From Methylopila sp. Yamaguchi (GTDB lineage Bacteria > Pseudomonadota > Alphaproteobacteria > Rhizobiales > Methylopilaceae), in assembly GCF_002897035.1 (NCBI RefSeq), contig NZ_BAUX01000001.1:186001-250000 (forward strand): a stretch of 64,000 nt of DNA, written 5' to 3'. The notes under the pieces were generated by a model, which made no database searches, was not told where the DNA came from, and saw only the letters and a program-made list of their open reading frames with translations. Positions within the stretch are counted from its first letter, which is position 1; every line of letters starts with the position of its first letter. Position numbers and translations under genes: made by a program. Positions 3,271-63,367 of this stretch are shown here, piece by piece.

Positions 3271-3726
3271 ATGTCGCGTATGACGAGTTTTCAGAGCCCG
3301 TTTCTGCTCGGGTTCGACGGCCTTGAGCGCGCGCTGGATCGCGTGGCGAAGAGCGCCGACGGCTATCCGCCGTACAACATCGAACGGGTGGGCCCGTCCA
3401 TCGACGGGCCGGAACGGCTCCGCATCACGCTCGCCGTCGCAGGCTTCCAGCCCGAACAGCTGGAGGTCACGATCGAGAAGAACGAACTGGTGATCCGCGG
3501 CCGGCCGCCAGCCGAGCGCGAGGACCGCGTCTACCTCCACAGAGGGATCGCGGCCCGTCAGTTCGTGCGAGCCTTTCTGCTCGCCGAAGGCATGGAGGTT
3601 CTCGGCGCCGATCTTGCGACGGGACTTCTGGTCGTCGATCTCGTTCGTCCAGAGCCGAAGCGCGAAGTTCAACGTATCGCCATCGCGTCGCGCGACGAAA
3701 GCAGCCGCTTAGCGGAGAAGGAGTGA
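3271..3726 (+). CDS. Small heat-shock protein, Hsp20/alpha-crystallin family
   Basis: An ATP-independent holdase that binds unfolding proteins. It has 151 residues; the alpha-crystallin domain spans about residues 30-130 and contains YNIERVGPSIDGPERLRITL, VAGFQPEQLEV and LVIRGR, which match the IbpA-type pattern. The start at 3271 begins the usual short N-terminal arm (MSRMTSFQSPFLLGFDGLER) and follows an AAGGA site; an in-frame ATG at 3253 is an alternative. A heat-shock-like promoter lies upstream, and a DUF1150 gene follows after three bases, a pairing standard in Hyphomicrobiales. Confidence 0.93.
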   Translation: MSRMTSFQSPFLLGFDGLERALDRVAKSADGYPPYNIERVGPSIDGPERLRITLAVAGFQPEQLEVTIEKNELVIRGRPPAEREDRVYLHRGIAARQFVRAFLLAEGMEVLGADLATGLLVVDLVRPEPKREVQRIAIASRDESSRLAEKE

Positions 3727-3729
3727 GTC

Positions 3730-3996
3730 ATGATCCGGGAAAACGCTTCGGTCCGTCGGGGTCCCCTGAGCTCGGCCGAATTTGCGGCCGTCGGCGACGG
3801 CCACATCGCTTACGTCAAGCCGATCCTCTCCGAGGAGCTCAACGCCCTGTTTCCGGAAGCCCCGGAGCTTGAGCCGGGCCTGAAGCTGTTCGCGCTGCTC
3901 GGCGCCAACGGGCAGCCGATCGTTGTCGCCGACAGCCGCGAAGCGCTGTTCGAAAGCGCCCGCGAGCACGAACTCGTCACCGTCAGCGTGCACTGA
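3730..3996 (+). CDS. DUF1150 family protein
   Basis: An 88-residue protein recognisable as DUF1150 by the central block with HIAYVKPI followed later by LFALLGANGQPIVVADSRE. The family is small, cytosolic and of unknown function, and is very often encoded directly after an Hsp20 gene in Alphaproteobacteria, as here. It is probably part of the same heat-induced transcript. No catalytic motif is visible. Confidence 0.85.
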   Translation: MIRENASVRRGPLSSAEFAAVGDGHIAYVKPILSEELNALFPEAPELEPGLKLFALLGANGQPIVVADSREALFESAREHELVTVSVH

Positions 3997-4020
3997 GATC
4001 AGCCGCGAGCGATGCAGAAC

Positions 4021-4047
4021 GGGACGCCGCGTACCTCGGGGCGTCCC
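4021..4047 (+). terminator. Hairpin after the Hsp20/DUF1150 pair
   Basis: GGGACGCC at 4021-4028 pairs with GGCGTCCC at 4040-4047, 25 bases after the DUF1150 stop. There is no T-run, so it may be a weak terminator or an RNA-stabilising hairpin. Confidence 0.45.
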
Positions 4048-4088
4048 GCGCCTGCGTGACGCCGGCGTCCGCCTGTAAACTAAGCAGG

Positions 4089-4553
4089 CTACGCCGCGTT
4101 TGAGGCGATCGGCTGGGTGAGCACGGCGTGCAGCGCCGTGGCGTCACGGGAGGCGCGGAGCTTCTGCGCGGTCGCGGGATCGCGCAGCACCCGTGCGACC
4201 CGCGCGAGCGCCTTCAGATGGTCCGCCCCCGCGGTCTCCGGCGCGAGCAGAAGGAAAGCGAGGTCGACCGGCTCGCCGTCCAGCGCGTCGAAGTCGATCG
4301 GACGGTCCAGCCGCGCGAACAGGCCGAACAGCCGGTCGAACTTCGGCAGCTTGCCGTGCGGGATCGCGATGCCGGCCCCCACGCCCGTGGAGCCCAGCCG
4401 CTCCCGCTGCAGCAGCGTCTCGAACACGTCGCGCTCCGGCAAGCCCGTGAGCTCCGCGGCGCGGGCCGCAAGCTCCTGGATGGCCTGCTTTTTCGAATTC
4501 ACTTTGAGCGCCGGTAATATCGCGTTCTGCGCGACGAGGTCGGCTAGGGGCAT
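4089..4553 (-). CDS. ptsN: Nitrogen-related PTS enzyme IIA (PtsN)
   Basis: An EIIA-Ntr protein of 154 residues, the terminal phosphate acceptor of the nitrogen PTS. Its phosphorylation state tunes potassium and nitrogen metabolism by protein binding rather than sugar transport. The fold signature includes RERLGSTGVGAGIAIPHGK, where the histidine of IPHGK is the phosphorylated residue, and FARLDRPIDFDALDGEPVDL. It closes the conserved rpoN-hpf-ptsN cluster, lying 78 bases after hpf. Confidence 0.96.
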   Translation of the reverse strand: MPLADLVAQNAILPALKVNSKKQAIQELAARAAELTGLPERDVFETLLQRERLGSTGVGAGIAIPHGKLPKFDRLFGLFARLDRPIDFDALDGEPVDLAFLLLAPETAGADHLKALARVARVLRDPATAQKLRASRDATALHAVLTQPIASNAA

Positions 4554-4631
4554 CTGACGTCGAAACCTCGGCTGCGCGGCCCGCAGCGACGCATGGGGAA
4601 CTCGCCCACACGCCGCGACCGCGGCTCGAAT

Positions 4632-55143: not shown

Positions 55144-55218
55144 GCGGGCGTAGCTCAGGGGTAGAGCACAACCTTGCCAAGGTTGGGGTCGTGGGTTCGA
55201 ATCCCATCGCCCGCTCCA
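55144..55218 (+). tRNA. tRNA-Gly (anticodon GCC), likely island attachment site
   Basis: 75 nt including the encoded CCA (55216-55218). Acceptor GCGGGCG pairs with CGCCCGC; D-loop AGCTCAGGGGTAGAGC; anticodon loop TTGCCAA with GCC; T-loop GGTTCGAATCC. The genes to its right are accessory and unlike the core genome to its left, so its 3' end is a plausible integration site; the second att copy is not in the window. Confidence 0.97.
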
Positions 55219-55228
55219 GTCGACCAAA

Positions 55229-55473: not shown

Positions 55474-55830
55474 CTAGGATCTCGGCCTGCCATCCTTGCA
55501 CCAGTCGATGCGGCCGTGCCTGATCCAAAAATGGCACCCGCAGTCGTTCTGTTGATGGACGGACGGCTTGACGGTCGGGCGGCCGAACCAGTCCAGGGCG
55601 ATCTCCCATCGCGGTCTACGCTTCTGGCTTAGCGAAAGCGGGATCGTCGCTCCGCACCCGCCGGGGCATTTCAGGCAAGCCCATTTCTCGAATCCGCCGT
55701 CGACCACGTGCACGACCTCGCCGGGCCTGAGCTCGGGTTCGGACGGATACGACCGTGCCCGGCTCGCCAAGAAATCGAACTCGATGAAGCCGAAGCGCCG
55801 CAACGTCCTCGCAATGAACCTCTTCAACAT
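55474..55830 (-). CDS. DUF6527 family protein of the ubiquitin-like operon
   Basis: 118 residues and last of the three conjugation genes, two bases after the JAMM-E1 stop. A basic N-terminus (MLKRFIARTLRRFGF) precedes a compact cysteine-rich domain: C52-x2-C55-x3-C59 in WACLKCPGGCGATIPL, then KPSVHQQNDCGCHFWIRHG with C97, C99 and H100, and C111. The pattern fits DUF6527, a family encoded with bacterial ubiquitin-like operons and suspected to be a processing or deconjugating enzyme. Start at 55830 gives the close spacing; the frame extends to 55905. Confidence 0.8.
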   Translation of the reverse strand: MLKRFIARTLRRFGFIEFDFLASRARSYPSEPELRPGEVVHVVDGGFEKWACLKCPGGCGATIPLSLSQKRRPRWEIALDWFGRPTVKPSVHQQNDCGCHFWIRHGRIDWCKDGRPRS

Positions 55831-55832
55831 TG

Positions 55833-57230
55833 CTAGCCGATCCTGTGCAGGAAGGGCGCCACGTCGGCCCGGCCCCAAATCTTCGGGGTCGCGCACTGCT
55901 CGCATTCCTGCCGAGGCGAGCAGGTCGTGGTTCGCTCCTCGATTGCGTCGAAGCGGCGGCGGCGTTCGGGCTTCATCCCCTCATCGCCGCGGAAGGCTGT
56001 CAGGGCATGGAGCAATTCATTGACGGCCATGCAGGCTGTTTCCGTGGTGAAGGTCACGACGACCGGCGCGGGGTCGCCGCCTCCGGAGACGTAGGCCTCC
56101 GCCTTCCGGCGCTCGAACTCGTCGGGGCCGGTGCGGCGCAGGGCTTCGTCGCGCGCTCGCACGGGATCGATCAGTCCACGGCAGAGCAGGCAGGGCGTCC
56201 CAGACGCCACCACGGTCACGCGGCCGGCCATCTCGTAGGGCCGGTCCTTGCTCTTCGGGATGATCCGGACGCCCATGTCGATGACCGGTATGCCGTAGTA
56301 ATACGCCAGCCTGTTGAGGAAGAGCCGGCCATCGTGATCGTCCGTGCAGCCGAAGATCACGTCGCATGAGCGCATGGCATCGCGCACGTCCGCATCGCCG
56401 ACCCATCCACGGAAGGTGGCGACCTGCACTCCGATCTCGGCCCCGCGGATCTCGCGGGCCAGGACGTCGACCTTCGACGCCTTCGCCCTGACGTCGTCGA
56501 GACGCGAGCCGTGGACGCGATTGAGGTTCGTCAGCTCGATCGTGTCGTCGTCGACCAGGAGGAGATGGCCGATCCCGAGCCGCGCCAGCAACATGGCGGT
56601 CGGGCTTCCGGTGCCGCCGCACCCCACGATCCCGACGCGCAGGCTGCGAACGAGCGGGTTAAAGGCCGGGCCGAACAGGCGGGCCTGACGATCCAGCACC
56701 TCCTCGACAGGCATCGCCCCGACGCCGTGAAGGATGAGCTTGCGCCCCGAGACCAGGACCCGCTCGCACGCCTCGGAGCGGTCGGGGCTCGTCCAATGCC
56801 GCGCGCAGATCGAGCCGTCGCCGCCCATGACGACGCTGGCGAAGCCGTGCCCATCGCCGGAGCGGTTCGAGACAATCCTGAGGAGGTCCTTCTCGTTGCG
56901 GTCGTCCTGGTCCGAGAAAAAGGCCGTGCTTCCGGGATGGGTGTGGGCGATGCCCAGGACCAGGCCGCGCTCCTCAGCATTTTTGAGGAGTCGGACGAAA
57001 GACCGCGTTGACCAGGTGACGTGAACGCCGGAGGCGGAGACGCGATCCTCGTCAGGCACCGGAACCACCTCATGGGAGACCAGCCGTCGCCTGCGCAGGC
57101 CGGTCCAGGGGTCCGACGCGATGTCGGCCACGCCGAAGAGAACGTAAGCCGCGGCCTCGGCGCCGTCGGCCGAGGAGAGAAGCGCGCGAAGCTCGGCTTC
57201 GTGCCCCTCGATGAGGATCATGTCGATCAT
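55833..57230 (-). CDS. JAMM peptidase-E1 (ThiF) fusion protein
   Basis: 465 residues. Residues 1-160: JAB/JAMM deubiquitinase-like domain with the zinc ligands E25, H96-x-H98 and S106-x2-D109 (AHTHPGSTAFFSDQDD). Residues about 190-465: ThiF/MoeB-type E1 with nucleotide loop VGCGGTGSP (202-210), LLLVDDDTIELTNLNR, and two CxxC pairs (C347/C350 and C443/C446) that should hold zinc. The E1 should adenylate a ubiquitin-like C-terminus and the JAMM should cut conjugates or trim the precursor. No obvious thioester cysteine is apparent beyond C400. It starts one base after the Ubl-E2 stop. Confidence 0.9.
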   Translation of the reverse strand: MIDMILIEGHEAELRALLSSADGAEAAAYVLFGVADIASDPWTGLRRRRLVSHEVVPVPDEDRVSASGVHVTWSTRSFVRLLKNAEERGLVLGIAHTHPGSTAFFSDQDDRNEKDLLRIVSNRSGDGHGFASVVMGGDGSICARHWTSPDRSEACERVLVSGRKLILHGVGAMPVEEVLDRQARLFGPAFNPLVRSLRVGIVGCGGTGSPTAMLLARLGIGHLLLVDDDTIELTNLNRVHGSRLDDVRAKASKVDVLAREIRGAEIGVQVATFRGWVGDADVRDAMRSCDVIFGCTDDHDGRLFLNRLAYYYGIPVIDMGVRIIPKSKDRPYEMAGRVTVVASGTPCLLCRGLIDPVRARDEALRRTGPDEFERRKAEAYVSGGGDPAPVVVTFTTETACMAVNELLHALTAFRGDEGMKPERRRRFDAIEERTTTCSPRQECEQCATPKIWGRADVAPFLHRIG

Positions 57231-57231
57231 G

Positions 57232-58098
57232 TCAGGCCGCCTCCGCGAGGGCGCGCTCGATGCGCTTGACCATCGTGTGGATGCCATCGATCCCGGGCCG
57301 CCACGTGTTGTTGTGCCGCGACCAGCGCTGCCAGATCTGGCCGCGGAAGGGGTGCTGCTGATCGGCCGCGCGCGGATACCTGTTCGCGCCCCGCAGCTTG
57401 AGCCACGGCAGGCAGTAGAACATGTCGGGCGGGCAGTCCGGATATCCCGGCGGCAGAACCACCAGGATATCGGCGGAGGCGGCGTCGAACTTGCCGTCCG
57501 GCAGCGCGATGCCCTTCAGCACCACGCCCGCCTGACCCGGCTGGCTGCCGTCCTCGTAGGCGATGCCGCGACCCTCGAGATAGGCGACGTCGCGCGGGGG
57601 CAACACGATCGAGAGGCCCTCGGTCGTCTGCGCGATCGCGGTGAAGAACTTCTCGACGCCCGCCTTCGACAGGTCGACCAGGTCGCCGTCGCGGATGAGA
57701 AGATCCTCGCCGCCCCGGATCTCCTGATAGACGTCGTGGGTGCGAGGGTCGACGCCGGCGTTCTTCTTAAGGACCAACCCGCTGATCAGGTTGGGACCCC
57801 ATTCGCCCTCGCGATCGTCGATCTTGAAGCGGAAGGAGCGATCGGTCCGGAAGACCAGGACCTTCTCGGCTCCCTTGGCGCGGAGATCGAACAGCTCTTC
57901 CTGGCGCAGGGTCTCCAGCGCGCCGTCCGGAAGCAGGGCGATCGCCAGGTGCTCGTCGACGGGCCGGGCGCCGGCCGCCTCCAGGATCTGGCGCCCGGTC
58001 ACGATCGGATCGGGGATTGCGATGCGGCGGAAGTCGAGCTCGGCGTTGCCGATCAGGATCTCGAAGTGGGGCGAAGGGGGGTGGGTGGAGTGGTTCAT
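57232..58098 (-). CDS. Double ubiquitin-like/E2-like fusion protein
   Basis: 288 residues. Two beta-grasp ubiquitin-like units of the Multi_ubiq type (about 11-85, FEILIGNAELDFRR; and 86-152, RSFRFKIDDREGEWG with DVYQEIRGGEDLLIRDGD), then an E2-like domain of the prokaryotic E2 family E type (about 165-285) with LPPGYPDCPPDMFYCLP and WQRWSRHNNTWRPGIDG. The E2 holds C222 and C229. Because the Ubl units are N-terminal, neither has a free Gly-Gly end, and the chain ends ALAEAA. A GAGG site precedes ATG 58098. It lies 85 bases after the helicase gene. Confidence 0.87.
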   Translation of the reverse strand: MNHSTHPPSPHFEILIGNAELDFRRIAIPDPIVTGRQILEAAGARPVDEHLAIALLPDGALETLRQEELFDLRAKGAEKVLVFRTDRSFRFKIDDREGEWGPNLISGLVLKKNAGVDPRTHDVYQEIRGGEDLLIRDGDLVDLSKAGVEKFFTAIAQTTEGLSIVLPPRDVAYLEGRGIAYEDGSQPGQAGVVLKGIALPDGKFDAASADILVVLPPGYPDCPPDMFYCLPWLKLRGANRYPRAADQQHPFRGQIWQRWSRHNNTWRPGIDGIHTMVKRIERALAEAA

Positions 58099-58183
58099 GA
58101 CGACCTCGTCTCGATGTCTGGGCGGCGGATGCCGACCCTTCCATTCGAGTAGCGAAGCGAGCTGGGCGGATTCGGTAATCGCC

Positions 58184-61100
58184 CTAAAAAGAATCCTCCG
58201 ATGTGCAGACGAAATAGTATTGGCAGGTCGGGCATTCCCTTCCCGGCGAGGGAGTGAAGTCGCCTTTCTCTATGCCCGCGATGGCGTCGGAATAGTCCGA
58301 GACCGCCTTCCCGCCCTTCGTCGGGACGATCGGCACCCTGCCGGCCTTAGCCGGGTAAAAGGCTTCAAGGTCGATCCTGCGGCCCGGGAACGCCTGCGCG
58401 GCGGCGACGCCCATCAAGGCCCACTCGGCCTTCTCCTCCTCAGACTTCGACTTGCGACCGGTCTTCAGCCGCTGCGCCACGACGCCGGAGGCCGTTTCCA
58501 GAACTCGGTCCGGCCGCAACGTGATCGTCTTGCCGCCCAACGCGGCAGTCCATTCCGTGCCCACGTCCTCACCCTCTACCAAAGCCGACACCGAGCCTTC
58601 CACCATCCGTCTCGCCTCGGCGCGGTAGAGCGGCTCGAAACCATGCTTGGGGCCGTGTTCGGCCCAGATCGCCTCCAGCTGCTCGATCGCGGCGGCAGCG
58701 GTCACGGTCCGACCCTTCCGACGTTCCTCGAAGATCCATCGGACGGTTTGCCTGACACAGCCATGGAACCGGAGATAAGCGCTGTCCTCCTCGCCGCCGC
58801 GAAGGCCATCGAGCACCTCGTAGCGATACCGGGCCGGGCACTTCATGTAGATATCGAGATGCCGGCCCTGATGGATTTCCTGCGGGACCGTGGGAGACAT
58901 CGGCTCGGACCGCTTGCTCCCTGTGGCGGTCGCCACGGTTCGCGATGCGGGCAGCACTCCGGGCATCCGCTCCAGGAACTTGGAAGGGTTGCAGGTCTGG
59001 CTCTCTGTGTAGCGCGCCGCGCTGCTGATCGACATCACGTCGCGGGCTCGCGACAGGGCGACGAAGAAGAGGCATTCCGTCTCGGCGTCGTGCTGGTCCT
59101 TCGATATTTCCAACCGTTCCATCCCGACCGGCGCGGGGCAACGCTGCGGGCGTTTGGGCCCCGGCACCGTGCGCGTCGCGACCTGCGGGAGGTGAACGGC
59201 GCGGAACTCCAGGCCCTTCGAGGCGTGCACCGTCATCATACGGACCGCGGGGATGCCGCTGGCCTCGGGCGGCACGATCCGGAATTGCCGGTCGTCGTCG
59301 AGCCTCTCCAGCCTGCGGATATCGTCAAGCAGCTTGCGTCGACCAGCGACCGACCGGTTGGCGTCGTAGTGCTCGCGGCAGAACTTGAGCAACTGGTAGA
59401 TGGCGACGAGGCGCTGCTGGGAGCGGACGTCGCCGACTTCCAGTATGGGACGAAGGTAGTCGCTGGATTCGAGGAGATAGTGGCTGAGCAGGTGCCAGGC
59501 GCTCGTCTTCCACTCGACGCCGTCGAGGTGCCGCGCCAGGAGCTTCAACGCCTCGGAGCTCGCTTCGCTAAGGCCCGGAACCTCGTCCGCTTTCGCGCAG
59601 GCCGCGATGACCTCCTGACCCGTCTCCCGCGCATGCCGCAGCAACGCCACGGCGTCGGACCTCGACACGCCGTATTGGGGGAACCGGGCGACGCGGACCA
59701 ACCCGACACCGCCTCGATCGCTACCCAGCGAGACCAGCGAGAGCAGGTCGCGAATCTCCGGTCGCTCGAAGAGGTCGCCGAGATAGAGGACCGGAACGCC
59801 GAGATCCTGAAGCGCCCGGCCGAACCTTGCCAGGCACAGATGGGTCGTGGCGAGGATTGCCTGATCCTCGTAACCGATGCCATCGCCCTTCAGCCGCTCG
59901 ATCTGATCGCGTATCGCCGTGGCTTCTGAGGCCAGGTCGGGCGCATGGAGGAGATCGACGAAGCCGACCCTGCCACGCTTCGCCCTCCAGGTCGCCGCCG
60001 GCTTCGGGGCAGCCGCCATCTCTGCCCCGAAGCGTGCGAAGGCCCGAACCACCGTCTCGCATGATCGGTAATTGGTCTTTAGCTGCCGGCGCTGGGCCCC
60101 GGTGTATCGGTCGGTGAACCCCATCGCATTCTGGGGGGCGGCGCCGCGAAAGCGATAGATCGACTGCCGAGGGTCGGCGACGACCCAGAGACGCTTGCCG
60201 CTCTCGGTGATTTGGTCGAGCAGCTCGGTGCTGGCGAAGTTGACGTCCTGATACTCGTCCACCAGCACATGGCGATGCTTGGCCATGACGGTCGCGCGGA
60301 CCTCGGGCCTCTCTCGCAGCAGCAGGACCGAGCGATAGACGAGGTCGCCGAAATCGACACTGCCGTCTGCTGCCAAGGTGCGTTGGTAGATCTCGTAGAC
60401 CTCGCCGACCTCCACGGCCTTCTCGGCCCGCTCAATGTCCTGGGCGGTCGTCGCGGCGGCGAGCGCGGCACGTGCGGCCGCAAGGTAGTCATGGTCGGAG
60501 ATCATCTCGTCCTTGGCCCGGGAGATCGCGCGTAGGATCGGGCGAAGTTCAAGCGTCGGGTCCCACAGGTTCTGGAAATGGTCGAGCCGGAGCTCGCCGA
60601 GCACGCTTTCCAGCAGCGCCAACTGTCCGGATTCGTCGAGGACCTTGAAATCGGCAGGCAGGCCTGCAGCGTGGCAGTGCAGCCGAAGCAGTTCAAGACC
60701 GTAGGCGTGGAAGGTCCCGACCCAGATTAGGGGCGCGGCGACAGCATCCACCCTCTCGACCCTCTCGATCATCTCGGCCGCGGCCTTGTTCGAGAACGTC
60801 AGCGCGAGGATCGACGACGGCGGCTCGCTTCGGGCGAGCAAGTGCTTGATCCGCGAGATCAAGGTCCGCGTCTTGCCCGTCCCCGGACCCGCGTCGAGGA
60901 TCAGGGGACGCTCGTCCCATTCGGCCGCCTCGCGCTGCTCGGGGTCCAGATCGAACGTGACGGCCGACCTATCCTCAGCCTCCTTCGGTGGCGTCAGCGG
61001 AGGCAGGAGCAACGCCCGGATGGCCTGCATCCGAACAAACTCGACGGGCAAGCCGAGGTCGTTCGCGATGGACGAGGGGCGCTCCTTTCCCTCGAAAAGC

Positions 61101-61540
61101 CACTTGCGAAGCTTGTCCGCGGGCAGCAGGAACTCCTGCGCGAAGATGTCCGCTTGGACTTCCTGCCGCTCGCGGGGGGAGTAGGCGACAACACGGTCGC
61201 TTCCCGTCTCGATCGGCTGACCGCCGAACCCTGCCTCGGTCGATCGGATCATGAAGGCGGTTTCGTCGTGAAGGACGAAATGACCGAGTTCGTGAGCCGC
61301 CACGACGGCGCGTTGGCGGCCATCGAGATTGGCGGCCAGCCGAACGAAGCCGTCGTCCCTTTCCAGCGCCCCGAGGACGCCGACGCCGTATACCGTCCCC
61401 GGTTCGAAGTTGTCGGTCTGCAATCCGGCCTGTTTCAGACCCTGCGCCACCAACTCCGCCGCCGCGTCGGACGATGCCTTGTTCCTGGCCTCCGCGTGCC
61501 GCTGGCGCGCCTTGAGACGAACATCGCGCCAGACGTCCAT
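58184..61540 (-). CDS. ImmA/IrrE peptidase-UvrD helicase-PD-(D/E)XK-like fusion
   Basis: 1118 residues. Residues 1-180: ImmA/IrrE zinc peptidase with HELGH (83-87) and a third ligand in RQEVQADIFAQEFLLP (E127 or D131). Residues about 195-880: UvrD/Rep-type SF1 helicase with GPGTGKT (218-224), DEYQD (motif II) and HASKGLEF (motif V). Residues about 890-1118: nuclease-like domain bracketed by C901 and C1103/C1106/C1112, the four-cysteine iron-sulfur layout of AddB/Cas4; D1011 and K1026 are present, but the acidic residue before K1026 is replaced (QRLKTG), so cleavage may be lost. Starts three bases after the XRE stop. Confidence 0.88.
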   Translation of the reverse strand: MDVWRDVRLKARQRHAEARNKASSDAAAELVAQGLKQAGLQTDNFEPGTVYGVGVLGALERDDGFVRLAANLDGRQRAVVAAHELGHFVLHDETAFMIRSTEAGFGGQPIETGSDRVVAYSPRERQEVQADIFAQEFLLPADKLRKWLFEGKERPSSIANDLGLPVEFVRMQAIRALLLPPLTPPKEAEDRSAVTFDLDPEQREAAEWDERPLILDAGPGTGKTRTLISRIKHLLARSEPPSSILALTFSNKAAAEMIERVERVDAVAAPLIWVGTFHAYGLELLRLHCHAAGLPADFKVLDESGQLALLESVLGELRLDHFQNLWDPTLELRPILRAISRAKDEMISDHDYLAAARAALAAATTAQDIERAEKAVEVGEVYEIYQRTLAADGSVDFGDLVYRSVLLLRERPEVRATVMAKHRHVLVDEYQDVNFASTELLDQITESGKRLWVVADPRQSIYRFRGAAPQNAMGFTDRYTGAQRRQLKTNYRSCETVVRAFARFGAEMAAAPKPAATWRAKRGRVGFVDLLHAPDLASEATAIRDQIERLKGDGIGYEDQAILATTHLCLARFGRALQDLGVPVLYLGDLFERPEIRDLLSLVSLGSDRGGVGLVRVARFPQYGVSRSDAVALLRHARETGQEVIAACAKADEVPGLSEASSEALKLLARHLDGVEWKTSAWHLLSHYLLESSDYLRPILEVGDVRSQQRLVAIYQLLKFCREHYDANRSVAGRRKLLDDIRRLERLDDDRQFRIVPPEASGIPAVRMMTVHASKGLEFRAVHLPQVATRTVPGPKRPQRCPAPVGMERLEISKDQHDAETECLFFVALSRARDVMSISSAARYTESQTCNPSKFLERMPGVLPASRTVATATGSKRSEPMSPTVPQEIHQGRHLDIYMKCPARYRYEVLDGLRGGEEDSAYLRFHGCVRQTVRWIFEERRKGRTVTAAAAIEQLEAIWAEHGPKHGFEPLYRAEARRMVEGSVSALVEGEDVGTEWTAALGGKTITLRPDRVLETASGVVAQRLKTGRKSKSEEEKAEWALMGVAAAQAFPGRRIDLEAFYPAKAGRVPIVPTKGGKAVSDYSDAIAGIEKGDFTPSPGRECPTCQYYFVCTSEDSF

Positions 61541-61543
61541 GCC

Positions 61544-62095
61544 CTATTCCTCGTCTTCCTTGAGCCAGAAGGCTTTCGCCTCGTCGGTCATCTCGGAGGC
61601 TTCGATCGCCTCTTGCCAGCTGCGCTTCCGACCCTCCCTCGGGCCGTTCGCAGCCTTGAAGGCGGCAACGGCCGGCGGCTCGCTGGAGGCCCTGGCGACG
61701 TCCAGCATCCACCGAGCCACCAGGCCGAGCTTCTCCGCGCCGACGCGGGCGAAGCGCTTTGGAATGCTTGCCGGTTCGATCCGCCCGGCGTTGATGTCCG
61801 AGACGATCGACCGCGGAACGGTCATCGCGTCCGCGAGGTCCCGCAACGACATCCCGGCACCCTGCGCGACCGCCCTCAGGGTGGGCATCGGCCTCGGCGC
61901 TGCCTCGACGGCGGCCTGCGGGCGGATGGAGGCCAACAATTCCATGTCGGCGATCTCGACCGCATGGCTGCGGATCTCGTTCGCGTATTGGGGATAGCGG
62001 TTGGTCCACTCCTTCAGGACTTTCGGCGTGACTACGTCGACGGCCTGGTGAAATTGAAAAATCACCTCATCGAGCTCCTCGGAAGAGGTTGTCAT
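61544..62095 (-). CDS. XRE-like regulator paired with the ImmA/IrrE protein
   Basis: 183 residues. The central part (about 75-135) is a helix-turn-helix: TLRAVAQGAGMSLRDLADAM then VPRSIVSDINAGRIEP. An acidic C-terminus (EMTDEAKAFWLKEDEE) follows. Genes of this type are often encoded just before an ImmA/IrrE peptidase that cleaves them, as in ICEBs1 ImmR-ImmA, and here the peptidase domain is in the next gene, three bases on. Start ATG 62095 overlaps the sigma-like stop. Confidence 0.82.
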   Translation of the reverse strand: MTTSSEELDEVIFQFHQAVDVVTPKVLKEWTNRYPQYANEIRSHAVEIADMELLASIRPQAAVEAAPRPMPTLRAVAQGAGMSLRDLADAMTVPRSIVSDINAGRIEPASIPKRFARVGAEKLGLVARWMLDVARASSEPPAVAAFKAANGPREGRKRSWQEAIEASEMTDEAKAFWLKEDEE

Positions 62096-62754
62096 TTGCT
62101 TGCTCCCAACAATTCGAAAATGTCCGCTCTTATCCGATCGACCCACGTCTTGATCGTTTGAGGGCTTTTTCCGAGCAACACGGCGATGCTCTCGTCCGGA
62201 TCGGACGAGGTATACTTGAAGCCGTTGAGGTGAAGTGCGAACGCCTTTCGATGGAGCGGGTCCAACCGCTCCAGGATGTCGGCGGCAATTGCCAACTGCT
62301 CCGGACTGAGCCGCGTGCTGTCGGCCGGGTCGAAGGTGCGGCCGGTTTCGTCATCCTCGACGGGAAACTGCTCGACCCATTCCTTCTCGCGAAGCGACGG
62401 GCGCAGACGGTCGGTGAGCCGTTCCCTTAGCTTCTTGTAGAAGCCTTTTTCAAACCCTACCCCATCCTTCGAGGTGGGATCCAGCAGGGCCTCGTTGAGC
62501 TTCCCGATGACTTCCTCGATGATCTCCGAGCCGCCATCCAGGAGATCGCGTCGGACACGTTGGCGCAGGTATCTCCGAGCCCGGCCTTGGAGATGCTCAA
62601 GGAGCCTTCCCCTGGTCCGTTCGGTATCGGGTCCGGCCATCTCCCGAAAGGCCGCGACGATCTCGACGGCCTTGCGGCGATCGAGGTGCCCGTCCTCGCT
62701 CAGCGACCGCCATTCGTCCCACTTCCCGGCATCCTGCCCTGTTAAGTCGTTCAA
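62092..62754 (-). CDS. Sigma-70-like regulatory factor
   Basis: 220 residues, start TTG 62754 behind a GGGGGG site. A region-2-like helix pair (RARRYLRQRVRRDLLDGG and IIEEVIGKLNEALL) and a region-4-like C-terminus (ILERLDPLHRKAFALHLNG; then VLLGKSPQTIKTWVDRIRAD) resemble an ECF sigma factor. It is first in the six-gene operon and so may control it or the host. A distinct HTH protein rather than a true sigma factor cannot be excluded. Confidence 0.75.
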   Translation of the reverse strand: MNDLTGQDAGKWDEWRSLSEDGHLDRRKAVEIVAAFREMAGPDTERTRGRLLEHLQGRARRYLRQRVRRDLLDGGSEIIEEVIGKLNEALLDPTSKDGVGFEKGFYKKLRERLTDRLRPSLREKEWVEQFPVEDDETGRTFDPADSTRLSPEQLAIAADILERLDPLHRKAFALHLNGFKYTSSDPDESIAVLLGKSPQTIKTWVDRIRADIFELLGASK

Positions 62755-63100: not shown

Positions 63101-63367
63101 TCAAGCGCTTGTCATGCCTGGATTTACCTTGGAAGGCCCGCCTTCCGCCGCCTGCATCAGCGCGTAGGGGTCAGCGCCGATTGCGCGGGCAAACTCGACA
63201 AACTCCGCTGCATCCAGCCGCCTCTCACCGAGCTCGACCTTTGAAATAAAGGTTTGACGCTGCCCCACGCGACGGCCCACCTCTGCCTGGGTGATACCAG
63301 CGGCCTTCCGGGCCTGGACCAGCGAGGCCACCATCCTTTGGTACAAATCGGATCGAATGGAGGTCAA
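63101..63367 (-). CDS. XRE family HTH transcriptional regulator
   Basis: 88 residues with a clear helix-turn-helix: LVQARKAAGITQAEVGRRVG, QRQTFISKVELGERRLDAAE and FVEFARAIGADP, the typical Cro/CI-type layout. TTG 63367 is the likely start, because YQRMVASLVQARKAAG corresponds to the normal N-terminus; ATG further in would cut the fold. Divergent from the gene at 63479, with an operator-like dyad between them. Confidence 0.88.
   Translation of the reverse strand: MTSIRSDLYQRMVASLVQARKAAGITQAEVGRRVGQRQTFISKVELGERRLDAAEFVEFARAIGADPYALMQAAEGGPSKVNPGMTSA

What the first reader, a model, noticed from the sequence alone, without database searches (positions are those of the whole stretch)
55474..58098. 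Compact bacterial ubiquitin-like conjugation system in three genes
Three genes with gaps of one and two bases encode a double ubiquitin-like/E2 fusion, a JAMM-peptidase/E1 fusion and a DUF6527 protein: all steps of a ubiquitin-type cycle (modifier, activation, transfer, removal) in the least number of chains. Comparative work by Iyer, Burroughs and Aravind described operons of this kind, and I recall recent reports of related Bil and Bub systems, the former antiphage, but cannot check how close this one is. What is seen directly is the fusion layout, motifs and spacing; antiviral function is inference.
Basis: partly seen in the sequence, partly recalled or inferred. Interest (0 to 1): 0.92.

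Follow-up and report, generated by a model that had tools for sequence, protein, structure and literature searches.

The report
Bacterial ubiquitin-like operon with DNA-sensor cassette
A bacterial gene island carries a ubiquitin-like protein-tagging kit of an already known type, and directly in front of it a three-gene switch (sigma-like factor, DNA-binding protein, protease fused to a DNA helicase) that also sits in front of other bacterial ubiquitin-like systems and probably turns them on when DNA is damaged or invaded.

Summary
In detail: 58098-57232(-) encodes two ubiquitin-like domains plus an E2 fold, 57230-55833(-) a JAMM peptidase-E1 fusion, 55830-55474(-) a DUF6527 protein; gaps are 1 and 2 bases. 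This layout was listed in 2006 (Iyer et al. row 6e) and its closest solved relatives include Citrobacter BubB and BubCD: a new member of the Bub kind.

Two points go further. (1) Split homologues end at or 2-8 residues after TTEG, and the window keeps that glycine (G161) just before the E2, so the JAMM peptidase probably cuts there. The E2 part has no invariant cysteine; WQRWSRH is invariant. (2) The unit is six genes: upstream lie a sigma-like gene, an HTH gene and an M78 protease-UvrD helicase-FeS fusion. Of 22 genomes found with the helicase alone, 21 have a Bub, Bil or related operon next door; one contig ends. A fixed-spacing promoter-like element lies before the downstream operon in 31 of 39 gaps. 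I found no description of this cassette, but the main Bub papers were not readable here.

The parts
57232..58098 (-). Ubl-Ubl-E2 fusion, 288 aa: two Multi_ubiq stretches (the better one at residues 89-154), tail TTEG with G161 (codon 57618-57616), Prok-E2_E 166-286 with WQRWSRH at 256-262
   Evidence: Pfam; alignment; fold model and PDB match
55833..57230 (-). JAMM peptidase-E1 fusion, 465 aa (Prok-JAB 10-138, ThiF 180-446; two CxxC pairs, C347/C350 and C443/C446)
   Evidence: Pfam; phmmer to Citrobacter BubCD 8e-37; invariant residues in 19 rows
55474..55830 (-). DUF6527 protein, 118 aa, probably metal-binding (C55-x3-C59 ... C97-x2-H100 ... C111; of these only C55 and H100 are invariant in 19 rows)
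   Evidence: Pfam 1e-23; alignment; model pLDDT 76 without PDB match at E <= 0.001
58184..61540 (-). HEL: M78 (ImmA/IrrE) protease (HExxH at 83) + UvrD helicase (Walker A and B intact) + AddB/Cas4-like domain with four conserved cysteines (901, 1103, 1106, 1112) and degenerate nuclease site, 1118 aa
   Evidence: Pfam M78 5e-12, UvrD 4e-61, PDDEXK_1 3e-11; motif conservation in 23 rows
61544..62146 (-). HTH protein, 200 aa; candidate repressor and protease substrate (both roles inferred)
   Evidence: weak HTH hits under the cut-off, residues 89-125; syntenic homologues
62092..62754 (-). SIG: protein with sigma-70 region-4-like C-terminus, 220 aa
   Evidence: Sigma70_r4_2 3e-5, just under the cut-off; TIGR02937 3e-8, under its cut-off; Sigma70_r4_2 in 13 of 22 homologues at E <= 0.01
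58151..58177 (-). promoter-like element TACCG-N18-CGCT in the gap between HEL and the Ubl gene, beginning 79 nt before the Ubl start codon
62792..62818 (-). second copy of the element upstream of SIG; its CGCT lies inside an inverted repeat GTTGCA-N7-TGCAAC
55144..55224 (+). tRNA-Gly gene (55144-55218); 55174-55224 is repeated exactly (51 bp) at contig C1 261298-261348, 20.1 kb further on: probable attachment-site pair of an integrative island whose tRNA-side end is this operon

Best explanation
It is a Bub-type (Iyer class 6e) ubiquitin-like conjugation operon under a dedicated DNA-sensing control cassette. Proposed working: in quiet cells the HTH protein keeps cassette and operon low. On DNA damage or entry of foreign DNA, HEL binds or moves along single strands or DNA ends, its M78 protease domain becomes active and cleaves the HTH protein, as CapP does to CapH; SIG then drives its own operon and the downstream operon from TWCCG-N17/18-CG[AC]T promoters. 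The Ubl-Ubl-E2 precursor is cut after G161 by the JAMM domain, giving a two-Ubl modifier that ends in TTEG and a free E2; the E1 adenylates the glycine and the E2-like protein passes it on by a route without a conserved E2 cysteine (invariant WQRWSRH), with DUF6527 perhaps as target adaptor; JAMM can remove the tag. Shown by computation: genes, folds, conserved active sites, cassette linkage, promoter-like element. Inferred: every biochemical step, the protease substrate, the trigger, and any phage defence.
For: Core: Pfam, PDB relatives BubCD, BubB, multi-Ub, fold match to BubB, JAMM residues and G203, G205, T207, G208, S209 of the E1 loop invariant in 19 rows. Cut site: 5 of 8 split Ubls end exactly at TTEG, 3 carry 2-8 residues more; G161 is invariant in 12 of 12 fusions while the linker behind it varies; residues 159-163 are disordered in the model; 6 of 6 inspected operons whose E1 has DUF6791 in place of a JAMM domain lack the tail. 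Cassette: HEL matches are sharply separated from plain UvrD (E <= 4e-175 against >= 4e-66 in the class and phylum draws); 21 of 22 such genomes, the order draw included, have a ubiquitin-like operon adjacent; 12 of 13 plasmid loci chosen by me likewise, including BilABCD by PADLOC models. Element: 31 of 39 gaps with hits concentrated at spacers 17 and 18; 9 of 11 in genomes fetched after the pattern was fixed; 0 of 13 Bub loci without the cassette. The M78 proteases CapP and PprI are activated by ssDNA (passages).
Against: No expression, cleavage or conjugation data. SIG is diverged: Sigma70_r4_2 in 13 of 22 rows, Sigma70_ECF in 2 of 22. The strict element is missing in 8 of 39 gaps, among them the relative L010; around the SIG start it is found in 11 of 26 (two of the 11, L038 and L087, inside the annotated gene) and in 3 of the 11 later loci examined. 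An inverted repeat around the CG[AC]T box is not general (arms of 6 or more in 3 of 44, 1.2 expected). The cassette is not needed for Bub: 3 of 10 genome loci and 10 of 12 fetched plasmid loci found with the Ubl-E2 lack it. DUF6527 gave no fold match. The pattern was drawn from part of the first set of gaps, and the loci are not all independent.
Confidence: 0.6

Rival explanations
1. HEL is an effector, not a sensor: a Gabija-like helicase-nuclease defence gene that travels with ubiquitin-like operons and is regulated or targeted by conjugation.
For: The best PADLOC hits of HEL are GajB helicases (25 of 65 families shown); an AddB/Cas4-like domain with four cysteines is fused at the C-terminus.
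Against: Where this genome's own AddA/AddB-like ORFs read DYKT, none of the 22 unbroken HEL rows has an acidic residue two places before the lysine position, and the lysine itself is kept in 4 of 22 (window, L007, L039, L042), so nuclease action is doubtful. The M78 site is conserved. Of 10 fetched plasmid Bub loci without the cassette 9 have an annotated ImmA/IrrE gene, 8 of them beside an annotated HTH gene, as if that pair replaced the cassette.
Confidence: 0.25
2. The Ubl-E2 fusion is never cut; it works as a Ubl-binding RWD-like scaffold, as Iyer et al. 2006 suggested for inactive E2 folds, or is conjugated whole.
For: No invariant E2 cysteine; Iyer et al. call the domain likely inactive (passages); multi-ubiquitin relatives form filaments (PDB titles).
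Against: TTEG is kept at the junction and is the exact or near C-terminus of split homologues; JAMM ligands are invariant; Citrobacter BubB was solved in complex with BubCD (PDB title).
Confidence: 0.2
3. The operon is a general stress or regulatory modification system rather than phage defence.
For: The 2026 CapK paper says that Bub has not been demonstrated to protect against phage and may mediate more global stress responses (passage).
Against: The same cassette precedes BilABCD operons, which are reported antiphage systems (titles in a reference list; a review passage describes the Bil genes); the window copy lies in a probable integrative island.
Confidence: 0.35

Closest known systems
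Iyer, Burroughs, Aravind 2006, operon class 6e (PMC1779556, passages read)
   Same: PolyUbl with two to three Ubls, in some species fused to an inactive E2/RWD-like domain; JAB-E1 fusion; metal-binding protein with C-x3-C-x35-38-H-x2-C signature. Release of a fused Ubl by JAB at its glycine was proposed there for phage TAPI and ThiS/MoaD fusions
   Different: The words helicase, UvrD and sigma factor do not occur in that text; the passages that I saw do not place a cut between polyUbl and E2; the window's last ligands read C-x2-H, not H-x2-C
Bub (Citrobacter BubB/BubCD; Ye et al. 2026, Gong et al. 2025, neither held)
   Same: JAMM-E1 homologous over residues 17-414 (8e-37), E2 homologous with YQRWSRH, multi-Ub homologous
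   Different: Window fuses Ubl and E2 in one chain, whereas BubB is a separate chain in the PDB; SIG-HTH-HEL cassette in place of CapW, CapH+CapP or CapK+CapS (those named in PMC13373217)
Bil (BilABCD)
   Same: Ubl, E2, JAMM and E1 parts; homologues follow the same SIG-HTH-HEL cassette in 8 of the 22 HEL genomes (SIG and HTH not recognised in one, L107)
   Different: Four separate genes; BilB of L035 and L036 is DUF7665; the window proteins hit no Bil model in the rows shown
CapH+CapP and PprI/DdrO control pairs
   Same: DNA-binding protein plus M78 protease, ssDNA-activated in the described cases (passages)
   Different: Here the protease is fused to a UvrD helicase and a cysteine-bearing nuclease-like domain, and a sigma-like gene is added

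Membership tests
Bub / Iyer class 6e | Tandem Ubl protein (Multi_ubiq) | tested here: met
   PF14452 4e-32, two stretches; 8u38 fold match 2e-17
Bub / Iyer class 6e | E2/RWD-like domain without conserved cysteine | tested here: met
   PF14462 2e-47; no invariant Cys in 12 rows; BubB fold match TM 0.87
Bub / Iyer class 6e | JAMM-E1 fusion protein | tested here: met
   Prok-JAB + ThiF; BubCD 8e-37
Bub / Iyer class 6e | Metal-binding further component (here DUF6527) | tested here: met
   PF20137 1e-23; Cys/His pattern; that it is Iyer's protein Y is my reading of the signature; bound metal not testable
Bub / Iyer class 6e | Conjugates the Ubl to proteins | not testable with these tools
   needs biochemistry
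Bil | BilA, BilB, BilC and BilD proteins | tested here: not met
   no hit for the Ubl-E2 and DUF6527 proteins; only E1-E2 models among the 25 of 34 rows shown for the JAMM-E1 protein; L035 proteins hit all four Bil models
CapH+CapP control | HTH repressor plus M78 protease next to an immune operon | tested here: inconclusive
   M78 domain over its cut-off, HTH hits weak and under the cut-off; repression untested
CapH+CapP control | Protease is ssDNA-activated and cleaves the HTH protein | not testable with these tools
   needs purified proteins
ECF sigma factor | Sigma regions 2 and 4 | tested here: inconclusive
   region 4 model in 13 of 22, Sigma70_ECF in 2 of 22
Gabija | GajA partner next to the GajB helicase | tested here: not met
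   no GajA among the rows shown for seven window proteins; the helicase hits GajB as one of many UvrD models

The most novel reading that the evidence does not exclude
SIG-HTH-HEL is an undescribed, transferable control unit specific to bacterial ubiquitin-like conjugation: a helicase-driven DNA-end or ssDNA sensor with a built-in protease frees a dedicated sigma factor that reads one promoter type (TWCCG-N17/18-CG[AC]T) in front of Bub, Bil and further ubiquitin-like operon types. [quoted passage not shown]
Probability: 0.5. Interest if true: 0.8.

Novelty: new variant of a known kind. Interest (0 to 1): 0.62.

Why it matters
What the bacterial ubiquitin-like systems respond to is open. A control cassette shared by Bub, Bil and related operons, with a recognisable promoter-like element, gives a direct handle: the element predicts the regulon, and its trigger can be read with a reporter. 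The fused Ubl-E2 with TTEG at the joint predicts that the peptidase first matures the modifier by cutting off its own E2, which can be checked on a gel. A protease fused to an SF1 helicase would also be a new way of coupling DNA sensing to proteolysis.

Tried and rejected
Rejected: Bil membership of the window operon; canonical E2 by conserved cysteine; phage origin (no match in 50,697 phage records at E <= 1e-3; one partial relative, L034, in viral contigs). DUF6527 fold: best PDB match E 0.92, unusable. General operator palindrome around the CG[AC]T box: not supported (which took only regions with a motif hit). A 30-nt ungapped comparison of the two intergenic regions beat all 60 shuffles in 5 of 23 loci only (L007, L035, L036, L086, L087); the bipartite pattern was tested instead. 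Empty attachment site in same-genus genome G464: left flank and tRNA found (92%), right flank not found behind it beyond 45 bases, so the empty site is not shown. L008 (helicase frame interrupted) and L108 (helicase in two ORFs) were described only; L008 does not count among the unbroken HEL rows. In the control the start codons of L009, L012 and L013 are my estimates.

Literature: DUF6527 gives 0 papers. Searches listed no paper that by title or start of abstract describes the cassette; most listings were capped (12-25 rows). I read passages of PMC1779556, PMC13373217, PMC11354881, PMC10904395 and PMC12355090, no whole paper. The main Bub papers, the Bil paper and the CapP paper were not held, so novelty of the cassette is not proven. 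My memory that Bub uses a serine/oxyester route is uncertain and rests on no call.
Full report
OBSERVATION. The three genes exist as described. Domain searches give two Multi_ubiq stretches and Prok-E2_E for the first, Prok-JAB and ThiF for the second, DUF6527 for the third. The closest solved proteins are Methylobacterium brachiatum multi-ubiquitin (8u38, 3e-32) and, for the E2 part, Citrobacter BubB (9e-9), and Citrobacter BubCD for the second protein (8e-37). An AlphaFold model of the first protein (pLDDT 75, 10 sequences) matches multi-ubiquitin structures (E 2e-17, 39% identity) and BubB (rmsd 1.5 over 122 columns, TM 0.87 by target length).

ACTIVE SITES. In 19 JAMM-E1 sequences E25, H96, H98, S106 and D109 (JAMM), G203, G205, T207, G208 and S209 of the E1 loop, and four cysteines in two CxxC pairs (347/350, 443/446) are invariant; no other cysteine is, C295 being nearly so. 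That the four bind zinc is recalled from MoeB/ThiF. D109 corresponds to the D of Citrobacter BubCD that depositors changed to alanine (D104A; alignments and names). In 12 Ubl-E2 fusions no cysteine is invariant, while WQRWSRH (256-262) is, and BubB reads YQRWSRH. Iyer et al. 2006 called this domain likely inactive (passages).

CUT SITE. In eight homologous loci Ubl and E2 are separate genes. Five of these Ubls end exactly at TTEG (L009, L015, L016, L020, L021); three end 2, 3 and 8 residues later (L018, L017, L019). In the window and 11 other fusions G161 is invariant (E160 is A in one) and the E2 follows after a linker of variable length. The model is disordered at 159-163. Six inspected operons (L024, L040, L043, L044, L045, L085) have DUF6791 in place of a JAMM domain before ThiF and lack the tail. 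I infer that the JAMM domain matures a precursor whose extension is its own E2. Release of fused Ubls by JAB was proposed in 2006 for other fusions.

THE UNIT IS LARGER. Directly upstream on the same strand lie SIG (62754-62092), HTH (62146-61544, overlapping SIG) and HEL (61540-58184), the last with M78 protease, UvrD helicase and an AddB/Cas4-like domain. Of ten genome contigs relatives found with the Ubl-E2 alone, seven have HEL upstream (L004-L008, L010, L011), three do not (L009, L012, L013). Of 12 plasmid loci fetched out of 175 records found with the Ubl-E2, two have it (L023, L025); of the ten others nine have an annotated ImmA/IrrE gene (not L019), eight of them beside an annotated HTH gene (not L017).

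CASSETTE SEARCHED ON ITS OWN. A profile of the HEL N-terminal 479 positions (A6, 20 rows) was run on 385 genomes of the class, 398 of the phylum and 397 of the order; draws share some genomes, the window's among them. Matches of the fusion: 5, 6 and 13; all span positions 1 or 2 to 477-479 except G990 (2-348, E 5e-125). In the class and phylum draws the next matches are at E >= 4e-66 and begin at position 155 or later, i.e. plain UvrD; the order draw was cut at 1e-100. That makes 22 distinct genomes: the window, G065 (its contig of 9,320 bases is L010) and 20 more, all fetched. Next to HEL, downstream on the same strand, are: Ubl-E2/JAMM-E1/DUF6527 in 4 (window, L010, L088, L100); multi-Ub/DUF6791-type E1/DUF6527 in 7 (L085, L089, L090, L097, L098, L101, L103; E1 type by BLAST to L044, Pfam-checked for L085 only); BilABCD homologues in 8 (L086, L087, L099, L102, L105-L108); other multi-Ub/E1 operons in 2 (L091, L092); one contig end (L104). 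So 21 of 22, one undetermined. SIG and HTH were recognised in 20 of the 21 (not L107) and in L104. Independently, HEL against plasmids gave 107 records (E <= 1e-40); I chose 13 of the 60 listed for diversity, not at random: 12 have a ubiquitin-like operon within the 5-kb flanks (11 downstream, L041 divergent), and one (L042) has an insertion-sequence gene next to HEL and Bub genes about 9 kb away in the same record. L035 proteins hit PADLOC BilA, B, C, D at 5e-59, 7e-64, 2e-70, 2e-174. The rows of A6 came from loci with such operons, which may favour them; the gap in the scores speaks against many unseen members in the class and phylum draws. The 12 same-genus genomes listed in the order draw lack HEL.

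PROMOTER-LIKE ELEMENT. Reading the two intergenic regions of the window and four close relatives showed TACCG-N16-TTCGCT-like pairs. Generalised to TWCCG-N17/18-CG[ACT]T, the element occurs in 21 of 29 HEL-downstream gaps against 0.24 expected from dinucleotide shuffles, and in 11 of 26 regions around the SIG start against 0.43. The pattern was drawn from part of these loci. It was then applied to the order genomes fetched later: 9 of 11 complete gaps, and 3 of 11 SIG regions. Over 39 gaps (28 of the first set, with L011 added and L041 and L042, which have no Ubl gene downstream, left out; 11 later) 31 carry it, 20 with spacer 17 and 11 with 18; other spacers from 8 to 28 give 0-5 loci. None of 13 Bub loci without the cassette has it within 160 nt of the Ubl gene. 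Close relatives among the loci are not independent. An inverted repeat around the CG[AC]T box is strong upstream of SIG in the window, L004 and L006, but not generally.

HEL. HExxH, Walker A, Walker B and the cysteines 901, 1103, 1106, 1112 are conserved in at least 22 of 23 aligned rows, L008 being broken. The acidic residue of the nuclease D/E-x-K is absent at the aligned place in the 22 unbroken rows, and the lysine is kept in 4, where two AddA/AddB-like ORFs of this genome (named by eye) read VDYKT and LDYKTG. I read this as a helicase with a structural, perhaps FeS-bearing, domain and an active protease: a sensor rather than a nuclease. CapP and PprI, both M78 proteases, are activated by ssDNA (passages in PMC13373217 and PMC10904395).

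ISLAND. tRNA-Gly at 55144-55218; its last 45 bases plus 6 more are repeated exactly at contig C1 261298-261348, 20.1 kb on, without a whole tRNA there. G+C is lower in between, and a tyrosine-recombinase-like ORF lies within (by eye). The operon sits at the tRNA edge. An empty site was looked for in one genome and not shown.

LITERATURE. Iyer 2006 Table 1 row 6e matches the core, fusion and metal-binding protein included (passages). Chambers et al. 2026: 219 of 544 Bub operons are associated with CapW or CapH+CapP, 59 of 544 with CapK+CapS (231 in a wider search), and Bub has not been demonstrated to protect against phage (passages); the word helicase does not occur in that text. The two main Bub papers were not readable.

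VERDICT. Core: known kind, new member. Cassette plus cut site: a variant that I did not find described, with strong linkage evidence and untested mechanism.

Noticed in passing
L034 (viral contig), 3673-4592: Partial Ubl-E2 and JAMM-E1 relative on an IMG/VR contig, the one relative found by the single viral-contig scan.
   Followed up: no
L026 11249-20000 (contig C1 251248-259999): Rest of the island: tyrosine-recombinase-like ORF, a VapE-like ORF and a large NTPase-like ORF (read by eye from translations).
   Followed up: no
L024, L040, L043, L044, L045, L085: Multi-ubiquitin operons whose E1 carries DUF6791 instead of a JAMM domain (6 of 6 scanned) and whose Ubl protein has no TTEG tail: what this E1 activates, and whether anything is conjugated, is unclear.
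   Followed up: partly
L015, L021: Nostoc and Chroococcidiopsis plasmids carry Bub near a SAVED-domain gene, in L015 also a nucleotidyltransferase gene (CBASS-like).
   Followed up: no
window 63101-63367: Separate small HTH_3-type gene upstream of SIG; weak homologues also lie near the cassette in L103 and L108.
   Followed up: no
L042: Cassette about 9 kb from the Bub genes of the same plasmid, with an IS66-type gene next to HEL.
   Followed up: partly
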